Below are positions 2,174-54,406 of a stretch of 64,000 bases of DNA, piece by piece; within the stretch, counting starts at the first letter, position 1, and each line of letters begins with the position of its first letter. The notes beneath the pieces were generated by a model that was not told the DNA's origin, did not search any database, and saw nothing but the letters and a program-made list of their open reading frames with translations. Source of the stretch: Glycomyces tenuis DSM 44171 (GTDB lineage Bacteria > Actinomycetota > Actinomycetes > Mycobacteriales > Micromonosporaceae); contig NZ_ATYW01000003.1 of NCBI RefSeq assembly GCF_000427885.1, forward strand, positions 244,159 through 308,158, read 5' to 3'. A program made the position numbers and the translations under genes.

Positions 2174-4600
2174 ATGCGATTCGCCGCATCCGCCCGCCGC
2201 AGACCCGTCCGCTGGCTCGCCCTGGGGCTGAGCGCCGCCACCGCCGTCGCCGTCGGCGCGCTGGCCCAGCTCCCCGCCAGCGCCGACCACACCGATCCAG
2301 GCCCCGACATCCGCGTCAACCAGTACGCCTACGCCGCCGACGGCGCCAAGGGCGCCACCTTCGTCACCGACGCCTCCAGCGGCCAGAGCTGGGAGCTCGT
2401 CGACGCCTCCGGCGCCGTCGTCGCCTCAGGCACCACCGAGGTCCACGGCGCCGACGCCGCCTCGGGCGACAGCGTCCACGACATCGACTTCTCCGCCTAC
2501 GACACCCCCGGCACCGGGTACCGCCTCCAGATCGCAGGCGAGCAGAGCCACCCCTTCGACATCGCCGCCGACCCCTGGAGCGGGCTGCGCGACGACGCGC
2601 TCGCGTTCTTCTACCACCAGAGGAGCGGCATCGAGATCGAGGCCCAGTACGTCGGCGCCGAGTACGCCCGCCCCGCCGGCCACGTGAACGTCGCCCCCAA
2701 CCAGGGCGACGACGGCGTCGGCTGTCTGAACGGCTCCTGCGACTACACCCTCGACGTCGCCGGCGGCTGGTACGACGCCGGCGACCACGGCAAATACGTC
2801 GTCAACGGGGGCATCTCCACCTGGCAGCTCCAGAACGCCTACGAGCGGGCCCTCGAAGTCGACGGCGCCGACCCCTCGGCCTTCGCCGACGGCGCCCTCG
2901 CCATCCCCGAGTCGTCCAACGGCGTCCCCGACCTGCTCGACGAGGCCCGCTGGAACCTCGAGTTCATGATGAGCATGCAGGTCCCCGAAGGCGAGCCGCT
3001 CGCGGGCATGGCCCACCACAAGGTCCACGACATGGCCTGGACCGGCCTGCCCATGCCGCCCCACGAGGACCCCGAGACGCGGCGCCTGAGCCCGCCGAGC
3101 GTCACGGCCACGCTCAACCTCGCCGCCGCCGCGGCCCAGGCCTCCCGCCTGTGGGAGGACCACGACCCGGCCTTCGCCGCCGAGGCCCTCGACGTCGCCC
3201 GCACCGCCTATGCGGCGGCCGAGGCCAACCCGGACCGCTACCCGGACCCGAACGACGGCACCGGCGGCGGCTCCTACGCCGACAGCGACGCCACCGACGA
3301 GTTCTACTGGGCCGCCGCCGAACTGTTCACCACCACCGGCGAGTCGCAGTACCGCTCCGACCTGACCTCCTCGGAATGGTGGTTCGGCCAGGGCTTCACC
3401 GACCACGGCTTCGGCTGGCCCTCGACCGCGCCGCTGGCCGACCTGACGCTCGCGCTGGCACCCAGCGGCCTGTCCGAGGCCGAACGGCAGGCCGTGCGCG
3501 ACGCGGTCGTCGCCGGCGCCGACGGCTACGTCGACGACGCGGCCTCCCAGGGCTACCCGGTCACGTACGCGCCCCGGAACTGGAGCTACGTGTGGGGCTC
3601 GAACAGCCAGGTCCTCAACAACGCCACCGTCGTCGCCTACGCCTACGACCTCACCGGCGAGCGGGTCTACCTCGACACCGTCAGCGAGGCGATGGACTAC
3701 CTCCTGGGACGCAACGCCCTCGGGCAGTCCTACGTCACCGGCTACGGCGAGAAGGACTCCCACAACCAGCACCACCGGTTCTGGGCGAACCAGCTCGACG
3801 CGTCCCTGCCGAACCCGCCGCCGGGCACCCTCGCGGGCGGCCCGAACTCGGCCCTCCAGGACGAGGTCGCCCAGGAGCACCTGGCCGGCTGCGCCGGACC
3901 CAAGTGCTACATCGACGACATCGAGTCCTGGTCGACCAACGAGGTCACCATCAACTGGAACGCGCCGCTGGCGTGGATCTCCGCCTTCCTGGCCGACCAG
4001 AGCGAGGGCGAGGACCCGCCGACCGACCCCGACGAACTGGCCGCGGTCCAGAACCTCGAGGCCGTCGCCGACTACGAGACCGTGGCCCTCACCTGGGACG
4101 CCCCGCCGTGGGACAACGAGATCGAGATCCGCCGCGACGGGGCGCGGATCGCCGTCCTGCCCGGAGGCGGCACCGCCTACACCGACACCGAGATCGAATG
4201 GGGCACCGAGTACACCTACACCGTGGCCGCGGTGCCCGGCGAAGGCCAGGAAGCGGCCGCCGCGACAGTGTCCGCGACCACCGCCTGGCCCCCGGACGAG
4301 GGCGAATGCCAGGGCACGGTGGAGATCGTCAACGACTGGGGCTCGGGCTTCCAGGCCAGGGTCACCGTCCGCAACCACGGCAACAGCACCATCAACGAAT
4401 GGACGCTCCCGTGGACCTGGAGCGGCGGGCAGCGGATCACGAACCTGTGGAACGCCGAGTGGAGCCAGTCCGGCGCGGAGGTGACCACGAGCGACCTCGG
4501 CTGGAACGGCACCATCGCCACCGGAGGCGAGGTCGAGTTCGGCTTCATCGCGACCGGCCAGGCCGAGGAGCTTCACTTCCTCCAGTGCGATTTCGCCTGA
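2174..4600 (+). CDS. Secreted GH9 endoglucanase with FnIII and CBM2 domains
   Basis: An 808-residue secreted cellulase cleaving beta-1,4-glucan. The order is a basic signal peptide ending ASADH (about 1-38), a CelD-type Ig-like domain (about 45-130), the GH9 catalytic domain (about 140-605), FnIII (about 617-700) and a C-terminal CBM2 (about 712-808). The GH9 signature DAGDHGKYV near residue 205 supplies the catalytic base aspartates. NEVTINWNAPL near 590 carries the proton-donor glutamate. CBM2 features include paired cysteines (GECQG, LQCDF) and several exposed tryptophans. I chose ATG 2174 because signal peptide and GAG-rich leader follow; an upstream in-frame extension is non-signal-like. 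It is probably repressed by a CebR-like protein through the operator at 2125. Confidence 0.95.
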   Translation: MRFAASARRRPVRWLALGLSAATAVAVGALAQLPASADHTDPGPDIRVNQYAYAADGAKGATFVTDASSGQSWELVDASGAVVASGTTEVHGADAASGDSVHDIDFSAYDTPGTGYRLQIAGEQSHPFDIAADPWSGLRDDALAFFYHQRSGIEIEAQYVGAEYARPAGHVNVAPNQGDDGVGCLNGSCDYTLDVAGGWYDAGDHGKYVVNGGISTWQLQNAYERALEVDGADPSAFADGALAIPESSNGVPDLLDEARWNLEFMMSMQVPEGEPLAGMAHHKVHDMAWTGLPMPPHEDPETRRLSPPSVTATLNLAAAAAQASRLWEDHDPAFAAEALDVARTAYAAAEANPDRYPDPNDGTGGGSYADSDATDEFYWAAAELFTTTGESQYRSDLTSSEWWFGQGFTDHGFGWPSTAPLADLTLALAPSGLSEAERQAVRDAVVAGADGYVDDAASQGYPVTYAPRNWSYVWGSNSQVLNNATVVAYAYDLTGERVYLDTVSEAMDYLLGRNALGQSYVTGYGEKDSHNQHHRFWANQLDASLPNPPPGTLAGGPNSALQDEVAQEHLAGCAGPKCYIDDIESWSTNEVTINWNAPLAWISAFLADQSEGEDPPTDPDELAAVQNLEAVADYETVALTWDAPPWDNEIEIRRDGARIAVLPGGGTAYTDTEIEWGTEYTYTVAAVPGEGQEAAAATVSATTAWPPDEGECQGTVEIVNDWGSGFQARVTVRNHGNSTINEWTLPWTWSGGQRITNLWNAEWSQSGAEVTTSDLGWNGTIATGGEVEFGFIATGQAEELHFLQCDFA

Positions 4601-40205: not shown

Positions 40206-40280
40206 TGGGGTATGGTGTAATTGGCAACACGGCTGATTCTGGTTCAGTTGTTCTTGGTTCGAGTCCAGGTACCCCAGCCA
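40206..40280 (+). tRNA. tRNA-Gln (anticodon CTG), CCA encoded
   Basis: A complete cloverleaf. Acceptor TGGGGTA pairs with TACCCCA. The anticodon stem CTGA/TCAG encloses the loop TTCTGGT with anticodon CTG. The T-arm is CTTGG-TTCGAGT-CCAGG, with discriminator G and encoded CCA at the end. The 3' flank holds a hairpin around 40300-40330. The 3' half (40240-40280) is repeated at 41474, marking it as an integration site. Confidence 0.96.
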
Positions 40281-40416: not shown

Positions 40417-40677
40417 TCAGTCGTCGTAGTGCCCGCGGGCTTGGGCAACCTCGAGGATGTCATCTCGCACTCGGTAGACCAGACGGTGTTCCTCATCGAT
40501 CCGCCGCGACCACCAGCCTGACAGTGGTCCCTTCAACGGCTCGGGCTTGCCGATGCCCGTGAACGGCTCGCGCTTGATCTCCCTGATCAGGCGGTTGACC
40601 CGCTTGGTGATCTTGCGGTCGCTCTCGGCCCAGTAGGTGTAGTCCTCCCAGCCGACTTCCGAAAAGGCCGTCTTCAC
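40417..40677 (-). CDS. yoeB: YoeB/Txe-family ribosome-dependent mRNA endonuclease toxin
   Basis: An 86-residue toxin that cleaves mRNA in the ribosomal A site. The expected YoeB residues are seen: a glutamate in [18 protein letters not shown], basic residues in [14 protein letters not shown], and a C-terminal histidine in ARGHYDD. The start GTG at 40677 abuts the antitoxin TGA, so translation is coupled. Flanked by tRNA-Gln and its duplicated fragment, it is probably part of a mobile remnant. Confidence 0.93.
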
Positions 40678-40935
40678 TCAGTCGTCCTCCACCTCGATGA
40701 GGTCGCGGACAGTCCCGCCTCCGGCGTCCATCTCGGCGATCGACTTCATCAGGCGCTCGGCGTTGCGGCGCGACCGGAGCAAGAACATCGTCTCCTGCCA
40801 TGCCTCGTAGTCCTCCTCGGATATCAGCACGGCGTTGCCGCTCTTCGAGGCGATGCGCACCGGAGCGTGATCGTCGTTGACCTTCTTGATGAGCGGGAAC
40901 AGGTCCTTCCTGGCCTCGCTTGCGGTAATGGTCAT
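40678..40935 (-). CDS. yefM: YefM/Phd-family antitoxin
   Basis: An 85-residue antitoxin beginning MTITASEARKDLFPLIKKVNDDHAPVRI, the Phd/YefM DNA-binding N-domain. The C-terminal half (AEMDAGGGTVRDLIEVEDD) is acidic and would wrap the toxin. ATG 40935 follows GAGGAGG. Upstream lie TGTACA and a longer dyad, as expected for YefM autoregulation. Confidence 0.93.
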   Translation of the reverse strand: MTITASEARKDLFPLIKKVNDDHAPVRIASKSGNAVLISEEDYEAWQETMFLLRSRRNAERLMKSIAEMDAGGGTVRDLIEVEDD

Positions 40936-40969
40936 ACTGCCGCCTCCTCGCAACTATGGCACCTCATAT

Positions 40970-45259: not shown

Positions 45260-46162
45260 CTAGTCGGGGACGACGAGGCGGAGGTGGTGGTCGGCCAGTC
45301 CGATCGTGATCTGCTGGCCCCAGGTGACGGTGAGATGGTCGGACTCGACGCCGTCGGCGAAGACCACGAGCCGCTCGCTCTCGCAGACCAGCCGCAGCCG
45401 CTCGCCCGCCCGCAGCACGCCGGAGGTCAGCGAGACACCGGTCGCCGGGGACGGCCATGCCTCCCGGACGAACCAGGACAGGGACGACTCCTCCGGCGAG
45501 GGCGGCGGCTCGCTCCAGCCGCGTTCGGCGGCGATGGAGGCGCTCCAACCGGTGGCGCCGGTGCCGGTGCCGATCACCACGCCCGAGGACGACTGGCGCT
45601 CGTGCAGCCCGTTCGCGCTGATGAGCCGGTAGCGCGCGGACTGGTGGGTGGCGTGGCCCGCGTACACCTCGTTGAGGCCGGCCAGCTCCTGGCCGTCGTC
45701 GAGGCGGGCGGCGACCATGGTGAGCCGCCGGACCGCCGCCGCGCCCTCGGCCGCCGCCTTGAGCGCGGCGGCGACCGAGTCCGGGCGGAAGCGGACCATC
45801 ACGCCGGGGTTGCGGTCCGGCTCGGGATCCACTCCGATCACCGCCTGACCGGTCAGGTACTTCGCGAGGTTGGCGACCAGCCCGTCCTGGCCGACGGCGA
45901 TGACCAGGTCTTCTGGCGCGAACAGGAAATTGGGCAGGTCCGCTCGGTCCACCCGGCCCCGGCGCCAGTCGGCCGGGACCAGCGATTCCACCTCGGTGAG
46001 CGCCGCCCGCAGGACCTCGTGCCGAGCGGTGATCTCCTCCAGGTCGCGGCCGCGCCGGCGCAGGAAGTGCTCCGCCGCGGCGCGGGTGCCGTGTCGGGCC
46101 AGCAGCTCGTCCAGCTCGCTGCGGCGGCTGACCACCACCGCCCTCGGTGCCAGTGTCGTCAT
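45260..46162 (-). CDS. NAD-kinase-family protein
   Basis: A 300-residue protein with the NAD-kinase layout. LVIAVGQDGLVA replaces the GGDGT signature. NEVYAGHATHQSARYRL is the NE/D motif equivalent, and GTGTGATGW is the glycine-rich C-terminal motif. The altered first signature (GQDG) leaves NAD phosphorylation plausible but unproven. It overlaps the SPFH gene by ATGA and lies under the operator shared with a divergent NrtR-type regulator of NAD metabolism, which supports an NAD-linked function. Confidence 0.75.
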   Translation of the reverse strand: MTTLAPRAVVVSRRSELDELLARHGTRAAAEHFLRRRGRDLEEITARHEVLRAALTEVESLVPADWRRGRVDRADLPNFLFAPEDLVIAVGQDGLVANLAKYLTGQAVIGVDPEPDRNPGVMVRFRPDSVAAALKAAAEGAAAVRRLTMVAARLDDGQELAGLNEVYAGHATHQSARYRLISANGLHERQSSSGVVIGTGTGATGWSASIAAERGWSEPPPSPEESSLSWFVREAWPSPATGVSLTSGVLRAGERLRLVCESERLVVFADGVESDHLTVTWGQQITIGLADHHLRLVVPD

Positions 46163-47160
46163 CGCGAGCCGCCGCCGAGCCGGGCGAGGACGCCGGTGAG
46201 GAGGTCCGGGGTGATCGTGAGCTGGTCGATCTCGGGCAGCCGCCCCGCGAGTTCGCGCAAGGCCAGCGCCTGGAGCACCGCGGGCGGCAGCTCCCGGTAG
46301 GCGGCGAGGCGGGCCGTCTCCGCCTCGGCCTCGGCCGCGCCGACCGCTCGCACCCTGTCGGCGTGGGCGGCGGCGAGCGCGCGGTCCTTCTCCGCCCGGC
46401 CCTGGGCGAGGACCAGTTCCGCGGCCGCGGACAGCTCGGCCTTCCGCCGGTCGTTGGCGCCCTTCTGCTCGACCAGCCGCTGCTCGCGCCGGGCCAGCTC
46501 GATCTTGTTCTGCAGCTCGTTCTCCGCGATGGCCCGCTCCCGCTCCACGGCCTGGGCCCGCCGCGCGTAGGTGGCCTTGTCCGCGTCCTGCTGGACGGCC
46601 TCCCGAGTCGGGGTCTGCAACGACCGCTCCAGCTCCGGTTCCGGCCGGATCGCCACCACTCGGGCGCTGACCACGGCGACCCCGATGTCGCCGAGGCGGG
46701 CGTCGTCCGACAGCGCCGCGGCGACCGTCTCGCGGACCTGGGCGATGGCGCTGGTCAGCGCCTCCGCCAGCGGCAGGCGGGTCAGCAGGTCGAGGGCGGG
46801 CTGCTGGGCCAGCTCGGTGAGGAGGGTCGCGATCTGGTCGAGCGGGCGGGCGCGGGCCCCGCCGCGGTAGGGGTCGACGGAGAAGTCGAGCCGAGCGGCG
46901 GCCAGCGCGGGGTCGGCGATCCGGTACGTCACCGTGGCCTGGACGGTGACGTCGGCGAAGTCGGCCGTGCGGGCGTGGAACAGCAGCGGCAGTTCCCGGT
47001 CGTCCACCGGGACCTCGGAGAGCACTGCCACCAGCGGGCGGTACCAGAACGACTGCCCGGTCCCCTCTTTGGAGAGGCGGCCCCGTTTCTGGAACCGCAC
47101 CCAGGTGGTGGGGGTGCCGCGCAGGTGGCGCAGGAACAACAGCTTCGTGACATCGGCCAT
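46159..47160 (-). CDS. SPFH/band-7 domain protein
   Basis: A 333-residue protein with an SPFH domain (about 30-190: VLSEVPVDDRELPLLFHARTADFADVTVQATVTYRI). A long coiled-coil rich in Ala/Glu/Arg follows (about 195-290: QQDADKATYARRAQAVERERAIAENELQNKIELARREQ). There is no N-terminal transmembrane helix, so it may be cytosolic or peripheral. ATG 47160 follows GGAGG. It is first of a two-gene unit with the NAD-kinase-like gene. SPFH proteins scaffold membrane microdomains. Coupling to NAD kinase is unusual. Confidence 0.8.
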   Translation of the reverse strand: MADVTKLLFLRHLRGTPTTWVRFQKRGRLSKEGTGQSFWYRPLVAVLSEVPVDDRELPLLFHARTADFADVTVQATVTYRIADPALAAARLDFSVDPYRGGARARPLDQIATLLTELAQQPALDLLTRLPLAEALTSAIAQVRETVAAALSDDARLGDIGVAVVSARVVAIRPEPELERSLQTPTREAVQQDADKATYARRAQAVERERAIAENELQNKIELARREQRLVEQKGANDRRKAELSAAAELVLAQGRAEKDRALAAAHADRVRAVGAAEAEAETARLAAYRELPPAVLQALALRELAGRLPEIDQLTITPDLLTGVLARLGGGSR

Positions 47161-47185
47161 GAGGGTGCCTCCATTTCTCGTCATT

Positions 47186-47218
47186 TTGACGATAACAGTC
47201 GTGCTAGATTATCGTCAA
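47186..47218. promoter_or_regulatory. Symmetrical divergent promoter/operator of the nrtR-SPFH locus
   Basis: TTGACGATAA (47186-47195) and its exact complement TTATCGTCAA (47209-47218) are separated by 13 bp. Each arm contains TTGACG, the -35 of one promoter, and on the other strand TATCGT, the -10 of the opposite promoter. Each pair has an 18-bp spacer. One bound repressor dimer would cover both promoters. NrtR is the obvious candidate. Confidence 0.75.
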
Positions 47219-47222
47219 GGTG

Positions 47223-47909
47223 GTGATAATGAGTTATCCGGTGTTCGCGGTCACTGTCGACCTCGTGGTCCTCACCGTGCGGCAAGGCGAGCTGCACGTG
47301 CTCCTGGTGCGGCGCGGCTGCGAGCCCCACCTCGGCCAGTGGGCGCTGCCCGGCGGGTTCGTCCACGCCGACGAGGACCTCTCCACCGCGGCGCGGCGCG
47401 AACTGACCGAGGAGACCGGCCTGGCCGGCCCGGGCGGGCACCTGGAGCAGCTCGCCAGCTACGGCACGCCCGACCGCGACCCGCGCGGACGGGTGGTCAC
47501 GGTCGCCTACCTGGCCCTCCTGCCCGACCTCCCCGCTCCGACCGCCGGCACGGACGCGGCGGCGGCCGCGTGGCGGCCGGTCGGCCGCCACGGCCTCGCG
47601 TTCGACCACGACCGCATCCTCGCCGACGGCGTCGAGCGCGCCAGGTCCAAGTTGGAGTACACCCCGCTCGCCACCGCGTTCTGCCCGCCCGAGTTCACGA
47701 TCGCCGCGTTGCGGACGGTCTACGAGGCGGTCTGGGGCGAGTCGATCGATCCGCGGAACTTCCACCGCAAGGCCACCACCGCGCCGGGTTTCGTGGAACC
47801 CACCGGGCGGTCGACCGAAGGCGAGCCCGGACGACCCGCCAAGCTGTACCGGCGCGGAGACGCCGCCCTCCTCAACCCCCCGATCCTGCGCCGCAGGCCC
47901 GAGGGCTGA
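47223..47909 (+). CDS. NrtR-type Nudix-related transcriptional regulator
   Basis: A protein of about 228 residues. The N-terminal Nudix domain (about 5-140) has a Nudix box in the form GGFVHADEDLSTAARRELTEETGL. The C-terminal winged helix (about 150-228: PEFTIAALRTVYEAVWGESIDPRNFHRKA) defines NrtR. NrtR proteins sense ADP-ribose-type ligands and repress NAD-metabolism genes; here the divergent operon carries a NAD-kinase-like gene. Starts GTG 47220, GTG 47223 and ATG 47229 are possible. 47223 lies 7 nt after TATCGT and would be leaderless. Confidence 0.8.
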   Translation: MIMSYPVFAVTVDLVVLTVRQGELHVLLVRRGCEPHLGQWALPGGFVHADEDLSTAARRELTEETGLAGPGGHLEQLASYGTPDRDPRGRVVTVAYLALLPDLPAPTAGTDAAAAAWRPVGRHGLAFDHDRILADGVERARSKLEYTPLATAFCPPEFTIAALRTVYEAVWGESIDPRNFHRKATTAPGFVEPTGRSTEGEPGRPAKLYRRGDAALLNPPILRRRPEG

Positions 47910-48023: not shown

Positions 48024-51000
48024 TCACGGTCCCGTGTGGATGTAGGCCGCCCACCGGATCGGGTCGTCCGCCTCGCTTCGCAGGCGCTGGACGGCCCGGT
48101 GTAGGGCGCGGGCGGCCTCGTCCGGAGCGAGATCGCCCGTGTCCGAGGGCCGCAGTTCTTCGTAGAACTCCTCGGTGAGGCGGCGGGCGAACTCGTCGTC
48201 CACGGTCCATTGCGCCGCGACGACATGGGCGAAGCCCGCCAGTTGCAGTGCCCCCGACAAGTGCAGGGCCTCATCGGGCACCTCGGCGGTGCCGCGGGCG
48301 GTCTCGCAGGCCGACAGGAACGCCAAGCGGGCGTCACCGAGGCGAAGACGCGAGATGTCGGTGACCGTCAGCGTCTCCGACTCGCCCCGCTCGCCGCAGT
48401 ACAGGACGCCGCCCGCCGCGTCGTTCCAGTCCTGCCTGCCGTGGCCGGAGAAGTGCAGCATCGGATGTTCGAGGAGCGCTTGGAGGATCGCGGCCCGCGA
48501 GGCTTCCGATCCCTTGAGGAGGGTCGCTCCGGGGAGCCGCTCGGTGAGCATATGGGCCTCGGCGCGGGCATGCGGCAGAGGCGCCAGCCCTGGGACCTCG
48601 GACTGGTCGACCACGAGGATCCCGCCGGCCGGCCTCGCCCGGTGCCCGCCGTCCAAGGCGGCGAGCGACCGCAGGGTGGTGGTGTACGAGCAGACGTACC
48701 GATCGGGGAGGGTCCGGGGGCCCGTCCCGATCGCTCGGTTCCGTCCCGGTCGACTCTGGGCCCGCTCCGGCGCGGGCGAGTCGTCGTAGCGGCCGGCGGC
48801 GTGCAACGGCAGGAGCGAGAGCAGCCCGGTGGGGCACCACCACAGCCGTGAAGGCGAATCAGTGCCGTCGGGACCGAGCGACAGCCGTTCGAGTTCGGTC
48901 AGAACCGGCTCGGCGACCGCGTCCCACAGCCACACCAGCGTGTCCTTCAGCGTCAGTTGCGCGCGCCAGGTCGCGGCCGGGCCCTCTCCGTGCGCCGCCA
49001 GGGCGTCGAGCAGTTCGGCGGTCCGGGTCCGCAGGCCCTTCTCGCCTTTGGGCCCGTCGTCGACGCGCAAGTCGGGCAGCGGGACCGTGGAGATGCGGCC
49101 GCCGGTGACGATGAAGGCGTCGCAGCGCAGATCGCTGGTGTTGACCACGATCACCGGTCCGTCCGCCGCCGAGGCCCGCAGCCTGGTGAGGGACGGCGGC
49201 CGCTGGAAGTCCTCCAGACCGGGCAGCCCCCTCGCCCGCGAGACGAGGTCGTCCAGTTCGCGGGCGAGCTCGCGACGGCGGTCGACCTCCATGCGCTGGT
49301 GTTGCGCCAACGCGTCGACGCCGGTCCCGGCCGCGCCGAGGGCGCCGCCCTCGCCTCCCAGGTCCCCGGCCATGAAGTCCATAGTGGGGACCGACACGGT
49401 CTCGATCCGGGCCCTGACCCGTGTGATGCGCTCGGCCAGATCCGGATCGCGCTCGCGCAGTTCGGCCATGTCGTCCCGCGCGTCGAGGGCGTGGGCCAAG
49501 AGGATGCCACGGCCCTGCTCGAGGAGCTGGAGCGCCTCTTCCGGCCGGCCGGCGTTGAGAGCGATCGCCGCCGCCTCGGAGGCGATTCCCGCGTTCTGGC
49601 CGAGCGCGAGGACCCGGTCGTCGTGTTCGAGTCCGTGCCAGGCCAGCCGGGGCAGCTCGCCGATGGCGGCGCGCGACGCTTCGAGCGCCTGATCCCAGCC
49701 CCGCACTCCCGCCACGGCCAACTGCCGGGCCGTCCGGCGCCAGATGGAGGTGATCCGGAACCGCAGCATCGTCGTCGCGGCGGGGAGCTCCAGCGCCTGA
49801 CGGAAGCAGTCGAACGCCTCGTCCAGAGGGGCGGAGGACCACCACCGCATGCCGGCGACGAGGACCGAGCCGAGGTTCATCAGCGCGCGAGCGCGCTCCG
49901 GGTGCTCCTGGGGGAACAGCCGCACGGCGGTCCGGCCCGCCGTGGCCGCCTCCTTGACGTCCTTTCGGCGGCCACCGGCTTCGTGGAACCGCGCGGTGAG
50001 CGCGATCGACAGGTTCATGTGGTAGATCGGCAGCGACGGGTGGTCCTCGGGGCAGACGCGGATCGCCTCGCGCAGGGCGGTGATCGCCTCGTCGACGTCG
50101 CCGGGCCGCCGATGCGGGGACGAGAACCGGTGGCGCAGCGCGGTGGCGAGGGTGGATTGGAACACCATGCGCCGCGCGTGGCCGGGCCGCACGGAGTCCG
50201 CCGCGGCCCTGGCCGCCTCGACCGCCGCGTCGACGTCGGCCGCCTCCCCGGTGCGCTCGAACCTGGTGACCAGGGCGATCGTGAGGTTGTTGCGGTACCT
50301 GATCAGGCCCTCTCGGGTGGCCCGCGGATGCCGTATCGCCTCGCGGGCGCACGTGATCGCCTCGTCCAGGTCGGCGGGGGAGCCAGACTGCGAGAACCGG
50401 AGGCGGACGGCGGATCCGAGGTTCGCGAGGTGCATGGGGCGCCGCAGGTCGTCGGCAGGGGTGGCGGCCACGGCCTCGCGGTGGGTCCGCACGGCCGCCT
50501 CCAGGTCATCGGCGTCGCCTGTCCGGGTGTACCTGGCCATCAGGGCGTTGGCGAGATTGGTCGAGTACGCGACGCGGTCCGCATGGCCGGCGGGGAGCGA
50601 GTCGAGCGCCTCGCGGCTCCACTCGACCGCCCGGTCCAGGTCGTCGCGGTTCCCGCTGCCTTCGGCCCGGATCCGCAGCGCCATGCCGCGATTGGTCAGC
50701 GACTTGGCCCGATCTCCCGCGGTGACGTTCTCGACCGCGCCCGCCTTGTCGAAGTACCGCAGGGACTCCTCCATCAACGCCGGGTCCTGATACCGGTCGT
50801 GGGCGGCATGGAGGGTCTGGGCGAGATTGAAGTAGACCTGGTGCGCATGAGGGTCGGCGTCGCCGTTCAGCGACCGCTCGGCCCGGCGGTGCCATTCCAG
50901 GGCCCGGTCGAGGTCGTCAGTGTCGTCGCTCAAGACGAAGCGCCGCAGGAACGATCCGCCGAGGCTCGATTCCTCCCGCGCCAGATCCTCTCCGGACGCG

Positions 51001-52748
51001 TTCAGGGCGATCGACTCCCGGTGCGCCGCGATGGCGGCGTCGAGATCCTCCAAGGAGTGCGTGCGCGCCGCCCGGTGGTACAGGGCGTTGCCCAGTTCGT
51101 TGGCGCATTTGAGCCGGGACCGGCGGTGAAAGCCGTCCAGCAGCGCCCGGGCCTCGCGCAGCACCGCCACCGCCTCCTCGCCGACATCCACATTGAAGTC
51201 TCCGGCCAGGGCGTTGAGCCCCTCGCCGAGCAGTCCCAGGGCCATGCCGCGGTCGCTCCCCGCTTCGGCATACGCGTCGAGCACCGTGCGGGCCTCGCCG
51301 ACGGCCGCATCGAGATCGCCCCGGTCCCCGGTGCCGCGGTACTTGTTCAGCAGTGCCTGCGCCAGTTCGAACCGCGACATCGACGCGAAATGGCTCTCGC
51401 CGGCCTCGTCGATCGCCTGCCGAAGGAGGGCGATCGCCCGGTCGATCTCGGCCGGCTCCCGTGCGTGCTTGAACCGGTGCGCCAGCGCGTTGCCGAGGTT
51501 CGACAGGCATGCCTGGTGCTGCGGGCCGGTCGGCAGCGAGACCGCCAGCGCCCGCTCGGCCGCCGCGACGGCCGCGTCGTGGTCGGCGTCCTCGCCCGAG
51601 CCTTCCGCTTTGGTGCGCAGGACGGCGCTGAGATCGATCAGGCACCTGGGGAGCTCTGGATTGCCCGGAGCGCAGCCCTCCACCGCGGCCCTGGCCGAGC
51701 GCTCGGCCTCGGCCAGGTCGAAGGCGTCGCCGTAGTGCTGGAAGCGTTTGCGGTGGGCTTCGGCCAGGGCCGTCCGGCAGGCCGCGTCCAACGGGCCGCC
51801 GTCGGCAGAGTCGGGCACCGACCGCTGGAGCACCTCGACCGCCAGATCGAGGTCGCCGGGGTCGGCGCTGTGATCGAAGCGCAGCAGCAGGGCGTTCCCG
51901 GCGTTGTAGCCGAAGCCCGGATCCGGTTCGGGTGCGGCTCGGACCGACCGCTGCCCGAACTCGACGGCCTCGTCCAGGTCCGCCGCCGAGCCTCGCATGA
52001 GATAGCGCGTGTACAGCGCCGAGCACAGGCCCGACAGGTACGCCGGCAGCATCGGGTCCTCCGGCCGGGCCAGGTCGAGCGCCTCGCGACCGGCCGCGAC
52101 CGCTTCCTCCAACTGCTCGGTGACGCCGCTGTACGTGTGGTGGTCGCGCAGCGCCCCGCACAGCGAGGACAGCAGCGCCGGGCGGGCCGGGTGTGTGCTC
52201 GGCAGGACCTGGAGGACGGTGCGGCACATGCCGATCACGCTCTCCAGCGTGTCGCGGTCACCGCCGCTGCGCCAGCGCAGGTACAGCTCGTCGAAGCGGC
52301 TGGCCAGGGCCTCGAAGTCGTGGACGGGCGGCATCTCGGCCGCCGCGACGGCCTGGCGCAGTTCCAAGGGCACCTCGTCCGGCGCGAAGAGGTGGATCAC
52401 GGCGTACAGGTTGAGCGTCAGGCGCGCCTCGGCTTCGAACCCGGGTGCGGTCGGGCCGAGCAGCTCGCAGTGGAGGTAGTGGTAGGCGGCGACCGTCGAC
52501 AGGGCGCCCATGTCCAGGACGTAGAGCTCGGGTTCGGCGGCCCCCGGCGCTTCGAGGACGCGGATCAGCATCGGGCGGATCGCGAGCGCCGCGGCCTCCG
52601 CCTCGGGTTCGAGGATCGCGGTGCGGTTCTGGTGTTCCAGCAGGGACCTGACGCGCTCGTTGAGGTCGAGCGCGAGCTGTTCTACTCGCGCCCAGCCGAT
52701 CTCGCCGCCCGCCTGGGCGCCAGGGGAATCCGACACAGCCTCAAGCAT
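48024..52748 (-). CDS. Giant TPR-CHAT protein (caspase-like protease)
   Basis: About 1574 residues. Residues about 100-1130 are tandem tetratricopeptide-like repeats, each around 50 residues, with recurring units such as GDLDAAVGEARTVLDAYAEAG and DDLDRAVEWSREALDSLPAG. The C-terminal CHAT (caspase HetF associated with TPRs) domain is about 1270-1574. The catalytic His is in LHFSGHGRQDW (about 1436) and Cys in FLSACETARG (about 1481). Start choice between ATG 52748 and 52763 is open; neither has a ribosome-binding site. It is divergent from two small genes at 52788 and 53160. CHAT proteases act in bacterial conflict systems after an infection or stress signal. Confidence 0.85.
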   Translation of the reverse strand: MLEAVSDSPGAQAGGEIGWARVEQLALDLNERVRSLLEHQNRTAILEPEAEAAALAIRPMLIRVLEAPGAAEPELYVLDMGALSTVAAYHYLHCELLGPTAPGFEAEARLTLNLYAVIHLFAPDEVPLELRQAVAAAEMPPVHDFEALASRFDELYLRWRSGGDRDTLESVIGMCRTVLQVLPSTHPARPALLSSLCGALRDHHTYSGVTEQLEEAVAAGREALDLARPEDPMLPAYLSGLCSALYTRYLMRGSAADLDEAVEFGQRSVRAAPEPDPGFGYNAGNALLLRFDHSADPGDLDLAVEVLQRSVPDSADGGPLDAACRTALAEAHRKRFQHYGDAFDLAEAERSARAAVEGCAPGNPELPRCLIDLSAVLRTKAEGSGEDADHDAAVAAAERALAVSLPTGPQHQACLSNLGNALAHRFKHAREPAEIDRAIALLRQAIDEAGESHFASMSRFELAQALLNKYRGTGDRGDLDAAVGEARTVLDAYAEAGSDRGMALGLLGEGLNALAGDFNVDVGEEAVAVLREARALLDGFHRRSRLKCANELGNALYHRAARTHSLEDLDAAIAAHRESIALNASGEDLAREESSLGGSFLRRFVLSDDTDDLDRALEWHRRAERSLNGDADPHAHQVYFNLAQTLHAAHDRYQDPALMEESLRYFDKAGAVENVTAGDRAKSLTNRGMALRIRAEGSGNRDDLDRAVEWSREALDSLPAGHADRVAYSTNLANALMARYTRTGDADDLEAAVRTHREAVAATPADDLRRPMHLANLGSAVRLRFSQSGSPADLDEAITCAREAIRHPRATREGLIRYRNNLTIALVTRFERTGEAADVDAAVEAARAAADSVRPGHARRMVFQSTLATALRHRFSSPHRRPGDVDEAITALREAIRVCPEDHPSLPIYHMNLSIALTARFHEAGGRRKDVKEAATAGRTAVRLFPQEHPERARALMNLGSVLVAGMRWWSSAPLDEAFDCFRQALELPAATTMLRFRITSIWRRTARQLAVAGVRGWDQALEASRAAIGELPRLAWHGLEHDDRVLALGQNAGIASEAAAIALNAGRPEEALQLLEQGRGILLAHALDARDDMAELRERDPDLAERITRVRARIETVSVPTMDFMAGDLGGEGGALGAAGTGVDALAQHQRMEVDRRRELARELDDLVSRARGLPGLEDFQRPPSLTRLRASAADGPVIVVNTSDLRCDAFIVTGGRISTVPLPDLRVDDGPKGEKGLRTRTAELLDALAAHGEGPAATWRAQLTLKDTLVWLWDAVAEPVLTELERLSLGPDGTDSPSRLWWCPTGLLSLLPLHAAGRYDDSPAPERAQSRPGRNRAIGTGPRTLPDRYVCSYTTTLRSLAALDGGHRARPAGGILVVDQSEVPGLAPLPHARAEAHMLTERLPGATLLKGSEASRAAILQALLEHPMLHFSGHGRQDWNDAAGGVLYCGERGESETLTVTDISRLRLGDARLAFLSACETARGTAEVPDEALHLSGALQLAGFAHVVAAQWTVDDEFARRLTEEFYEELRPSDTGDLAPDEAARALHRAVQRLRSEADDPIRWAAYIHTGP

Positions 52749-52787
52749 GACATGATGAACCATCGGGTGCTGTACGGGAGGAAGAGG

Positions 52788-53156
52788 ATGGATCGTCCGG
52801 AACTGCTCGCCAAGCTCTGCGAGGCGCTGCCTGGGCTGCGGGAGGTCGCCGCCGCGCACGGTTTGAGCGGCGGCCTCGAGAAGGTGCTGAAGGCCGCTCG
52901 AGACGGCGAGTCGATCGAGGAGCCCTTGCGCGCCATCGGCTTGTTCTCGTTCATCACGTCCGTGACCGTGCGGGGCCCCGGTGCCGAGCACTCCGGAATG
53001 GTCGGTGTGCCCGGTATGGAAGGCGGCGGGCACGTCGTCACCGGCGTCTACCGGTGCCCCAACGGCGCCTGCGGCCGGATCGAACACCCCGCCGCCGGCG
53101 GGGACCGGCCCTCGTGCGGGGTCTTCCGCGATGCCCTGCGATACGAATCGAACTGA
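52788..53156 (+). CDS. Small Cys-containing partner of the CHAT gene
   Basis: A 122-residue protein. The helical N-terminal half (MDRPELLAKLCEALPGLREVAAAHGLSGGLEKVLKAARDG) resembles an effector-associated death-like domain. The C-terminal half has CPNGACGRIEHPAAGGDRPSCGVF, a possible zinc-binding knuckle with three cysteines and a histidine. ATG 52788 follows GGGAGGAAGAGG. It is divergent from the TPR-CHAT gene and couples with the next gene 3 bp downstream. It may be sensor, adaptor or CHAT substrate (inference). Confidence 0.6.
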   Translation: MDRPELLAKLCEALPGLREVAAAHGLSGGLEKVLKAARDGESIEEPLRAIGLFSFITSVTVRGPGAEHSGMVGVPGMEGGGHVVTGVYRCPNGACGRIEHPAAGGDRPSCGVFRDALRYESN

Positions 53157-53159
53157 CTC

Positions 53160-54086
53160 ATGACCGCCGTGCTCGCAGAAATGGGCGGCCGCCTCGCCGA
53201 ACGCTGGGCCTCCATGCTGATCCTGCCGGGGTTGGTGTTCACCCTCGGCGCGGCCGGAGCCTGGCGGCTCGGCCACGCGCACTGGGCCGATCTGGACCGC
53301 TTGTCCGAGACCGTCGGCGAACTGGAGGCGGGCTCGGCGTGGTCGGTCCTGGTCGTGGGCCTGCCGCTGCTGTCGGTCGCGTCCGCGCTGGCCTCCCGCT
53401 CTGTGGCGGCCGGCTTGTCCCGCTTGTGGTTCGAGCCTTGGCCGCGGGCATTGGCGTGGCTCGGTAAGCGGCTCCTGGAGTCGCGTCGGAGCCGTTGGAA
53501 GGCGGCGAACGAGGAGTTCGTCAAGGCGAGGGACGAAGGCGGCGCGCTGAAGGCCGAGCACGGGTCCGACTCGGGCGCCGTGGACGAGGATGTCGAGGCG
53601 TCCAGGCAGGAGCGGCTGGACGCCTTGGCGGGCAGGCGGAACGCGATCGGCTTGCGCAAGCCGTCCCGGCCGACCCGGATGGGGGACCGCCTGCGGGCGG
53701 TCGACCAGCGGGTCTGGTCCTGGTACAGGCTCGACCCGGTGTTCACCTGGCCGCGCCTGTGGCTGGTCCTGGGCGAAGCCGAGCAGCAGACGCTGCGCGC
53801 GGCGCGCGACCGGATCGACGCGTCCGTGGGCCTGTCCGGATGGGGCGTGCTGTGCCTGGTGCCCGCATTGTGGTGGTGGCCTTCGGTGTTCATCGCCGTG
53901 GGGCTCTTCGTCGTCGGATACCGGCAGACCAGGGATGCCGTGGAAGCCTTCGCGCAGCTCGCCGAGTCGGCCTACGACCTGCGGGGCGCGACCCTCGCAC
54001 GGGAGCTCGGCTTCGACGTCCCCGAGGGCCCGCTGTCGCAGTACATGGGGGAGCAGATCACCGCCCACCTGCGGAAGCACAGTTGA
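53160..54086 (+). CDS. Membrane protein partner of the CHAT locus
   Basis: A 308-residue protein. Hydrophobic helices at about 18-34 (ASMLILPGLVFTLGAAGAW) and 60-80 (SAWSVLVVGLPLLSVASALA) are followed by a long charged cytoplasmic segment (about 100-210). A hydrophobic pair lies at about 223-260 (GWGVLCLVPALWWWPSVFIAVGLFVVGY), with an amphipathic tail. It begins 3 bp after the stop of the small gene, so they are one operon. A membrane partner is consistent with a CHAT-activated pore or membrane effector, but that is untested. Confidence 0.6.
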   Translation: MTAVLAEMGGRLAERWASMLILPGLVFTLGAAGAWRLGHAHWADLDRLSETVGELEAGSAWSVLVVGLPLLSVASALASRSVAAGLSRLWFEPWPRALAWLGKRLLESRRSRWKAANEEFVKARDEGGALKAEHGSDSGAVDEDVEASRQERLDALAGRRNAIGLRKPSRPTRMGDRLRAVDQRVWSWYRLDPVFTWPRLWLVLGEAEQQTLRAARDRIDASVGLSGWGVLCLVPALWWWPSVFIAVGLFVVGYRQTRDAVEAFAQLAESAYDLRGATLARELGFDVPEGPLSQYMGEQITAHLRKHS

Positions 54087-54406
54087 CACCGGTGGGCTGA
54101 CCGGAGACCGCCGCGCGGCTGACGCTGTGATTTCAGGCGCACTTTCGAGGGTGTGGTCCGGTCGGTCCCGATCCGAGTCCGAGGGGCTCATCCGAGTACT
54201 TGAACATGAAAACGGGTTCCGCGGAGCGGGCCCTGTTCGTTCTGCCTGGACGGCGTCGCCGACACGCGTCGAACACTTCGCAAAGTGCCGGTTCCAACAC
54301 TCTTCATGCTGCTCGCACCCCCGAACGGTATTTGCAAAGGCTTGTCCCGATTCCGGGGATTCGGCGCCTTCGCGCAGAGCCGCAACCTCCCCGAGGAGAA
54401 CGCAGA
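54087..54406. other. 320-bp intergenic region before the ESX-like genes
   Basis: No gene supported. CACTT-N4-AAGTG (around 54278-54291) is a small dyad. GAGGAG (54393-54398) is the ribosome-binding site of the next gene. A promoter is expected here but cannot be placed with confidence. Confidence 0.35.

What the first reader, a model, noticed from the sequence alone, without database searches (positions are those of the whole stretch)
45260..47909. NrtR, SPFH protein and NAD-kinase-like protein around one symmetrical dual-promoter operator
The arms TTGACGATAA/TTATCGTCAA each serve as -35 for one direction and -10 for the other (18-bp spacers). A NAD-kinase-like gene with altered signature (GQDG) overlaps an SPFH coiled-coil gene. 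NrtR regulates NAD homeostasis in known cases. A membrane-scaffold/NAD-kinase pair under NrtR is, as far as I know, not characterised. It may localise NADP supply or respond to ADP-ribose stress.
Basis: partly seen in the sequence, partly recalled or inferred. Interest (0 to 1): 0.62.

Follow-up and report, generated by a model that had tools for sequence, protein, structure and literature searches.

The report
NrtR-boxed SPFH and kinase gene module
A sensor gene and a divergent pair of genes (a scaffold-type protein and a relative of NAD kinase) share a control region that is conserved in many actinobacteria, and similar gene sets occur in other bacterial phyla, so this looks like an unstudied response, probably to NAD breakdown.

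Summary
The genes and inverted arms are real, but the arms are misread. They are the inner halves of two NrtR-type boxes, TTATCGTCA-N3-TGACGATAA (47175-47195 and 47209-47229, 34 bp apart), not one dual-promoter element. Of 72 actinobacterial loci with a readable nrtR-SPFH gap, all have a box and 62 two, spaced 33/34 bp or one helical turn more (44/45; one 42). In 10 genomes with NrtR unlinked (69-76% identity), boxes stand both at SPFH and before the distant nrtR; one doubtful case (L072) and G214 differ. SPFH and kinase are adjacent in 93 of 93 loci. The trio also occurs in Alpha-, Beta- and Gammaproteobacteria; in Treponema the Nudix gene is 4 kb off.

The kinase has the NAD-kinase fold, nearest human mitochondrial NADK2 (Z 24.9), but GQDG (81 of 92; GPDG 10) instead of GGDG; 13 of 13 genomes tested also have an ordinary NAD kinase. 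The SPFH protein has no predicted N-terminal membrane helix. Best reading: a Nudix-sensing repressor releases a scaffolded NADK2-like kinase when NAD breaks down. Effector and substrate are untested. The open library searched showed no paper on it.

The parts
47229..47909 (+). NrtR-type regulator: Nudix sensor domain with complete catalytic box plus NrtR winged helix
   Evidence: Pfam NUDIX 2.4e-21 and NrtR_WHD 2.3e-15, both over cut-off; best solved matches 5bs6 (AraR) 2.3e-34, 2fml (MutT/nudix) 3.7e-32, 3gz5 (MutT/nudix; recalled to be Shewanella NrtR) 6.9e-27; Nudix box GX5EX7REXXEEXG complete in 67 of 69 relatives
46159..47160 (-). SPFH/Band 7 protein with a 115-residue helix and no predicted N-terminal membrane helix; start ATG 47160
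   Evidence: Band_7 3e-15 over cut-off; AF2 pLDDT 86.3, pTM 0.53, strands from residue 3, first helix 84-90, long helix 175-289; highest 19-residue hydropathy mean 1.23; best folds HflK/C, erlin, prohibitin, stomatin, flotillin, also major vault protein
45260..46162 (-). NAD-kinase-fold protein, nearest mitochondrial NADK2, with GQDGLVAN signature; start overlaps the SPFH stop (ATGA)
   Evidence: AF2 pLDDT 94.1; VIA-align Z 24.9 to 7r4m, 278 aligned, rmsd 3.0, 22% identity; profile hit to NADK2 2.3e-16
47175..47195 (.). operator box 1, TTCTCGTCATTTTGACGATAA, 14 bp upstream of the SPFH start
   Evidence: 0 mismatches to TTNTCGTCANNNTGACGANAA in the own genome; conserved in relatives; coordinates checked
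47209..47229 (.). operator box 2, TTATCGTCAAGGTGGTGATAA, covering the likely ribosome-binding site and the first base of nrtR
   Evidence: 2 mismatches; centre-to-centre 34 bp from box 1
   Evidence: reinterpretation
47168..47172 (-). GGAGG ribosome-binding site of the SPFH gene
   Evidence: read from the sequence

Best explanation
An autoregulated NAD-stress module. The Nudix/winged-helix protein (NrtR type) binds, probably as dimers, to two 21-bp boxes set about three helical turns apart on the same face of the DNA, and represses its own gene and the divergent SPFH-NADK2-like operon, whose promoters lie between or under the boxes. A NAD breakdown product (most likely ADP-ribose, which the complete Nudix site may also hydrolyse, ending the signal) releases the repressor. 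The operon then makes an SPFH ring or cage protein and, probably translationally coupled to it, an NADK2-like kinase held on or in that scaffold, which phosphorylates NAD(H) or a close relative beyond the work of the housekeeping NAD kinase. Shown by computation: the conserved gene unit, the paired boxes and their spacing, persistence of boxes when NrtR is unlinked, the NADK fold, the SPFH fold, a separate ordinary NAD kinase. Inferred: binding, repression, effector, Nudix turnover, kinase substrate, SPFH-kinase contact.
For: Gene unit: SPFH beside the kinase on the same strand in 93 of 93 loci, NrtR in the locus in 75 of 93. In 396 phylum genomes SPFH of this type (E <= 1e-30) is in 14; 13 have the kinase beside it and the 14th is cut by the end of a 3,780-bp contig. 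Operator: 72 of 72 gaps have a box with at least 13 of 18 matches and 62 have two; 100 dinucleotide shuffles gave means 0.4 (largest 2) and 0.01 (largest 1); spacing 33/34 bp in 46, 44/45 in 15, 42 in 1. Of the 10 single-box gaps (all Actinoplanes or Paractinoplanes) each has the left half of a second box at the usual 13-bp distance, the right half lying beyond my cut. Trans test: 6 of 6 genomes of one unnamed genus (g8, probably Streptomyces) and 4 of 4 Plantactinospora/Micromonospora genomes have an unlinked NrtR with a box before it and a box at SPFH; the pattern read backwards gave 0. The Micromonosporaceae unlinked NrtRs group with trio NrtRs (99/90), whereas 63-65% hits from three genomes with box-less SPFH fall in a paralogue clade (bootstrap not settled). 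TTnTCG-N9-CGAnAA, the pattern shared with the mapped M. smegmatis NrtR site GTTTTCGA-N7-TCGAAAAC (PMC6800001, passages), occurs exactly in 58 of 72 gaps. The Providencia trio NrtR matches 3gz5 at 1.7e-108; that 3gz5 is Shewanella NrtR is recalled, and the ADP-ribose response of that protein is cited in PMC4666351 (passages). Kinase. Ordinary NAD kinase in the own genome and 12 of 12 others.
Against: No binding, expression or enzyme data. The kinase lacks GGDG and falls below Pfam and NCBIfam cut-offs, so NAD may not be its substrate. Some NrtR-family proteins answer to NAD (NdnR) or arabinose (AraR) rather than ADP-ribose (PMC4666351). All five proteobacterial trio NrtRs aligned have degenerate Nudix boxes by eye, so hydrolysis cannot be essential to the module. 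Of 18 loci without NrtR, 17 had an SPFH upstream to read: 11 have boxes with 14 or more matches, one has weak ones (L078, 13 and 12, 34 bp apart), and five have none (L012, L045, L068, L072, L074). L072's genome has an NrtR of uncertain place (63%) with two boxes at itself and none at SPFH; G214 (L012) has a 50% NrtR and no box. Outside Actinomycetota the boxes were not established. The 80 loci are the best of 540 relatives in a capped list, so counts lean to near kin.
Confidence: 0.55

Rival explanations
1. The kinase acts on something other than NAD: it phosphorylates ADP-ribose (or another ADP-ribosyl nucleotide) at the 2'-OH to detoxify or convert the same metabolite that NrtR senses.
For: GQDG or GPDG replaces GGDG in 91 of 92 actinobacterial members and GQDG in 7 non-actinobacterial ones; an ordinary NAD kinase was present in 13 of 13 genomes; regulators often control enzymes of the metabolite they sense (inference).
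Against: The nearest solved fold is a true NAD kinase, NADK2, and the NE, TGTGxxxW and DG motifs are kept. No substrate data.
Confidence: 0.2
2. The kinase-like protein is catalytically dead and serves as a nucleotide-sensing or structural subunit of the SPFH assembly.
For: Altered GxDG signature, below curated NAD kinase cut-offs.
Against: D93, N164, G200-G202, W206 and D270-G271 are invariant and E165 is over 90% among 43 rows; E165 is D in Rhizobium, Methylomonas, Providencia, Moraxella, Cupriavidus and Treponema but E in Roseomonas. So strict a site is not expected of a dead enzyme.
Confidence: 0.15
3. The arms are a symmetrical divergent promoter in which each arm is -35 for one direction and -10 for the other.
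For: 9 of 12 matches on each strand with 18-bp spacers, beyond shuffles.
Against: TATCGT is a weak -10; the outer halves of the boxes are conserved too; 15 loci have 44/45-bp spacing; boxes also precede unlinked nrtR genes. The arms could still overlap promoter elements in this window.
Confidence: 0.05
4. A defence module: NrtR senses phage-triggered NAD loss and the SPFH-kinase pair protects or rebuilds the cofactor pool.
For: In Plantactinospora alkalitolerans two boxes with 17 of 18 matches, 34 bp apart, precede a SIR2-like gene; the genes occur on plasmids of three phyla; Nudix regulators control predicted anti-ADP-ribosylation systems (PMC9503650 section 3.8).
Against: One genome only for SIR2; no PADLOC hit for kinase or SPFH, only a weak one for the Nudix part of NrtR; no match to kinase or SPFH in 50,697 phage records; beyond the trio no neighbour cluster recurs in more than 14 of 89 loci (neighbours were not scanned for defence genes).
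Confidence: 0.12

Closest known systems
NrtR regulon of NAD metabolism (MsNrtR with nadABC; Shewanella NrtR)
   Same: Nudix plus winged-helix repressor, autoregulated, 21-23-bp palindrome; most boxes share TTnTCG-N9-CGAnAA with MsNrtR
   Different: Target is SPFH plus NADK-like rather than NAD synthesis or salvage; two phased boxes; Nudix box complete here, altered and inactive in MsNrtR
Human mitochondrial NAD kinase NADK2
   Same: Fold over 278 residues, NE and TGTGxxxW motifs
   Different: GGDG replaced by GQDG or GPDG; 22% identity; bacterial, beside an SPFH gene
Bacterial SPFH proteins (HflK/C, QmcA, flotillins)
   Same: SPFH domain and long helix
   Different: Known operon partners are often NfeD, and HflK/C works with FtsH (PMC13086221, passages); here the partner is a kinase and no N-terminal membrane helix is predicted
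Major vault protein, shoulder and cap-helix region
   Same: Protein without membrane span, SPFH fold and long helix, Z 10.6 to 12.3
   Different: 10-11% identity, rmsd 16-21 over the length, no vault repeats; several membrane SPFH proteins score as high or higher
Nudix- or WYL-regulated ARG-centred systems
   Same: Nudix-fused transcription factor as presumed ADP-ribose sensor (PMC9503650 section 3.8)
   Different: No ADP-ribosylglycohydrolase, phosphatase or chaperone gene seen in the trio; that paper's text has no hit for SPFH, Band 7 or NAD kinase

Membership tests
NrtR transcription factors | N-terminal Nudix domain with C-terminal NrtR winged helix | tested here: met
   NUDIX 76.6 bits and NrtR_WHD 56.9 bits, over cut-offs
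NrtR transcription factors | palindromic operator before its own and target genes, conserved among orthologues | tested here: met
   72 of 72 gaps with at least one box; 10 unlinked cases
NrtR transcription factors | cut-off of NCBIfam equivalog NF050029 | tested here: not met
   139 bits against 400; so I file it as NrtR-type by domains, not as that equivalog
NrtR transcription factors | DNA release by ADP-ribose | not testable with these tools
   needs EMSA
NAD kinase (NADK, incl. NADK2) | NADK two-domain fold | tested here: met
   Z 24.9 to 7r4m, model pLDDT 94
NAD kinase (NADK, incl. NADK2) | GGDG motif | tested here: not met
   GQDG 81, GPDG 10, one not scored, of 92
NAD kinase (NADK, incl. 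NADK2) | NE motif and TGTGxxxW / DG motifs | tested here: met
   N164 invariant, E165 over 90%, G200-G202, W206, D270-G271 invariant among 43 rows; ND instead of NE in six of eight plasmid-borne rows
NAD kinase (NADK, incl. NADK2) | Pfam NAD_kinase and NCBIfam cut-offs | tested here: not met
   window protein: no Pfam family up to E 0.1, best NCBIfam 24.5 bits against 316; 7 of 43 members reach PF01513 at E 0.01 or better, best 6.3e-05, cut-off not shown
NAD kinase (NADK, incl. NADK2) | phosphorylation of NAD | not testable with these tools
   needs enzyme assay
SPFH/Band 7 proteins | Band_7 domain | tested here: met
   57.1 bits, cut-off 23.6
SPFH/Band 7 proteins | N-terminal membrane helix, as in stomatin and HflK/C | tested here: not met
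   no helix in residues 1-83 of the model; hydropathy maximum 0.94 for windows starting in the first 80 residues, and over 1.6 anywhere in 4 of 91 relatives; other attachment not excluded
SPFH/Band 7 proteins | ring or cage assembly | not testable with these tools
   single-chain model only

The most novel reading that the evidence does not exclude
A soluble SPFH cage that carries or encloses an NADK2-like kinase of new specificity (for instance ADP-ribose or NADH rather than NAD), switched on by a repressor that both senses and destroys the inducing nucleotide: a self-terminating nucleotide-stress compartment found in several phyla and carried in part on plasmids.
Probability: 0.18. Interest if true: 0.85.

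Novelty: new variant of a known kind. Interest (0 to 1): 0.62.

Why it matters
It ties three well-known protein families into one conserved unit whose control can be read from DNA alone, and gives a candidate role to a group of SPFH proteins and to a kinase family that records call 'hypothetical protein' or 'sugar kinase'. If the substrate proves to be NAD(H) or ADP-ribose, it would show that bacteria localise NADP supply, or dispose of NAD debris, with an inducible protein scaffold.

Tried and rejected
Dual promoter: set aside as above.

Large regulon in the own genome: at up to 3 mismatches 8 sites against 3 in the control; only the two here have fewer than 3 mismatches. The six 3-mismatch sites were not followed.

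Module as housekeeping NAD kinase: rejected, an ordinary one is present in 13 of 13 genomes.

Phage origin: no phage record matches kinase or SPFH; the viral fold library gave one hit below 0.001 for the kinase, a Homavirus protein with TM 0.44.

Further partners: in 89 loci the next cluster after SPFH, kinase and NrtR occurs in 14 loci and looks like an ABC-type ATPase by eye. My gene caller recovered the kinase in only 66 of 89, so absences there mean little.

Same operator in Proteobacteria: a GTC-N5-GAC core occurs in Providencia and Moraxella with irregular spacing, weakly in Methylomonas, and not in Rhizobium or Cupriavidus; no claim made.

Further pattern matches in the unlinked-NrtR genomes, outside SPFH and nrtR: G023 three (439069, 445508, 3076271), G193 one, G128 one, G399 one, G397 two (together), G403 one. 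I read the genes at G023 439069 and 445508 (no Pfam family above cut-off), G397 (SIR2-like, see below) and G403 (inside a predicted gene); the others were not followed.

Genus of the unnamed g8 genomes: Streptomyces is my inference; a DNA search gave Streptomyces, Embleya, Nonomuraea and Kitasatospora plasmid records at 71-83% among the first rows, which does not settle it. A seventh g8 genome with the pair (G182) has boxes at SPFH but was not searched for NrtR.

Literature: Rodionov 2008 is not held; Huang 2009 was not asked for. Both are known to me by recall and through citations. Seen as passages only: PMC4666351, PMC2807442, PMC7159879, PMC6675116, PMC6800001, PMC11535050, PMC3223726, PMC13086221; PMC9503650 passages and section 3.8 whole. 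PMC6675116 reports a nadK1/nadK2 duplication in Actinobacteria found from E. coli nadK orthologues; I judge it a different pair because the family here is missed by NAD kinase models at cut-off, but the sequences were not compared.
Full report
What is there. On the - strand, a 333-residue SPFH protein (46159-47160) is followed, with an ATGA overlap, by a 300-residue NAD-kinase-fold protein (45260-46162). Divergently, on +, lies a 226-residue Nudix/winged-helix regulator (47229-47909). The genome has 5.7 Mb in 44 contigs, and among the loci fetched the closest relatives of all three proteins are in Glycomyces.

The operator. Comparison with relatives shows that each arm is one half of a 21-bp palindrome, TTATCGTCA-N3-TGACGATAA. 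In the window these are TTCTCGTCATTTTGACGATAA (47175-47195) and TTATCGTCAAGGTGGTGATAA (47209-47229). Of 93 loci with a strong kinase hit, 75 had an NrtR hit; three of these (L013, L014, L055) were dropped because a hit did not reach the start of its gene, and one duplicate of the window locus (L001) was left out. All 72 remaining gaps have a box with at least 13 of 18 matches and 62 have two; shuffles that keep dinucleotides give 0.4 and 0.01 on average. Centre-to-centre distance is 33 or 34 bp in 46 loci, 44 or 45 bp in 15 (all Arthrobacter, Pseudarthrobacter, Paenarthrobacter or Paeniglutamicibacter by record title), and 42 bp in one (L099). A jump of about 11 bp keeps the two boxes on the same face of the helix, as expected if the two bound dimers touch. 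In those 15 loci the inner halves cannot be -35/-10 partners at 18 bp. The 10 single-box gaps are all Actinoplanes or Paractinoplanes; there the left half of the second box is present at the usual distance and the right half lies beyond my cut. In the window box 2 covers the likely ribosome-binding site and first base of nrtR; box 1 lies 14 bp upstream of the SPFH start.

A prediction tested. If these are NrtR sites, they should stay when NrtR lies elsewhere. In one unnamed genus (g8, which I take to be Streptomyces) there is no NrtR next to SPFH-kinase. In 6 of 6 such genomes examined an NrtR of 69-70% identity lies elsewhere with a box 28-31 bp before the match, and boxes sit at SPFH; the pattern read backwards gives none. 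The same holds in 4 of 4 Micromonosporaceae genomes (three Plantactinospora, one Micromonospora) whose NrtR (75-76%) is unlinked, with the box 45 bp before it. Conversely, four loci with no box at SPFH lie in genomes with no NrtR match at E 1e-30 (L068), only paralogue-clade NrtRs (L045, L074), or, for L072, a paralogue plus an NrtR of uncertain place that has boxes at itself only. A fifth box-less case is L012 (G214), with a 50% NrtR match and no box. L078 has only weak boxes, L104 begins inside SPFH. These searches also gave a few matches elsewhere, listed under what was tried. The box shares TTnTCG-N9-CGAnAA with the mapped M. smegmatis NrtR site; 58 of 72 gaps hold that pattern exactly.

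The own genome has a second NrtR (G000:C25, 55% identity) beside a phosphorylase-superfamily gene; no box with 14 or more matches lies in that 9-kb stretch. Outside the window only 3-mismatch sites exist, near background.

The gene unit. SPFH and kinase are adjacent on one strand in 93 of 93 loci. In a sample of 396 genomes of the phylum, 13 carry the kinase at E 8e-26 or better (39 have any hit at 0.001; the weaker ones were not examined) and 14 the SPFH at 1e-30; the odd one is a contig end. So the pair travels as one. It is uncommon but wide: on plasmid records the kinase-SPFH pair occurs with a divergent Nudix regulator in Rhizobium etli, Methylomonas, Providencia, Moraxella and Cupriavidus; with a Nudix gene 4 kb off in Treponema; without an NrtR found in Roseomonas; and in Kitasatospora, where box-like sites stand before SPFH (by eye) but no NrtR is near. 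PLSDB records name the kinase 'hypothetical protein', 'sugar kinase' or 'ATP-NAD kinase PpnK-type protein'.

The kinase. An AlphaFold2 model (pLDDT 94.1) aligns to human mitochondrial NADK2 with Z 24.9 over 278 residues and to bacterial NAD kinases with Z about 20-22. The family profile finds NADK2 first (2.3e-16). The GGDG loop is GQDG (GPDG in 10 of 92); the acidic residue, the NE (or ND) motif, TGTGxxxW and the late DG are kept. Which residues define NAD kinases is recalled. Since GGDG is a defining feature and is not met, I do not file it as an NAD kinase but as an NADK2-like kinase of unknown substrate. Ordinary NAD kinases are present in the own genome and in 12 of 12 others with the pair.

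The SPFH protein. The model (pLDDT 86.3, pTM 0.53) starts with strands, not a membrane helix, and has a 115-residue helix; no stretch is strongly hydrophobic. Its best matches are HflK/C, erlin, prohibitin, stomatin and flotillin, with major vault protein close below. Scaffolding is inferred from the family.

The sensor. The Nudix box is complete in 67 of 69 actinobacterial relatives (exceptions L069, L084) and, by eye, in Treponema, but degenerate in the five proteobacterial ones aligned. MsNrtR, with an altered box, had no ADP-ribose hydrolase activity. So the actinobacterial trio regulators may hydrolyse what they sense; this is inference. The Providencia trio regulator is a close relative of 3gz5, recalled to be Shewanella NrtR, the best sequence reason to expect ADP-ribose as effector.

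Function and novelty. The most likely function is an NAD-stress response with a scaffolded NADK2-like kinase, confidence 0.55. The gene unit and operator are much firmer than the biochemistry. Searches of an open library for NrtR with SPFH, SPFH with NAD kinase and Nudix, and wider term sets (listings, with passages of some papers) showed no paper on this unit; most subscription papers are outside that library. I rate it a new variant of a known kind (an NrtR-type regulon with a new target).

Noticed in passing
L180:1666-3705 (-), boxes at 3715 and 3749 (Plantactinospora alkalitolerans genome, G397:C154): Two boxes with 17 of 18 matches, 34 bp apart, precede a SIR2-like gene (Pfam SIR2_2 over cut-off, weak PADLOC SIR2 hits), with a histidine kinase on the other side: a possible extra NrtR target that may consume NAD.
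   Followed up: partly
L123 5092-7540 and four similar loci of genus g8 (L124, L125, L127, L129): The gene divergent from SPFH-kinase, across the boxes, looks like arginine deiminase, followed by an ornithine carbamoyltransferase-like gene (named by eye), so it may share the control.
   Followed up: partly
G000:C25:1677-3504 (L132) and L182:2340-3966: A second kind of NrtR-type gene lies divergent to a phosphorylase-superfamily (PNP_UDP_1) gene that matches PADLOC effector models; in L182 two box-like sites 44 bp apart lie between them.
   Followed up: partly
L167 (pHHV216) and L166 (Moraxella osloensis pNP7-1): The kinase gene sits directly beside tetR-tet(H). On pHHV216 no NrtR match is found and only part of the SPFH matches, near a transposase gene; on pNP7-1 the trio is whole.
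   Followed up: no
window 48024-54191 (-): Very long reading frame whose C-terminal part resembles a CHAT-type peptidase (SGHG and SACET motifs, recalled, not tested).
   Followed up: no
window 40417-40953 (-): Two adjacent small genes that look like a YoeB/YefM toxin-antitoxin pair (recalled from sequence, not tested), near a tRNA-Gln gene at 40206-40280.
   Followed up: no
L155:4039-4059 (G023): A paralogous NrtR (62% identity), two genes from what looks like scpB by eye, has TAATAGTCATCACGACTATAA upstream, a variant of the box; paralogues may differ slightly in specificity.
   Followed up: no
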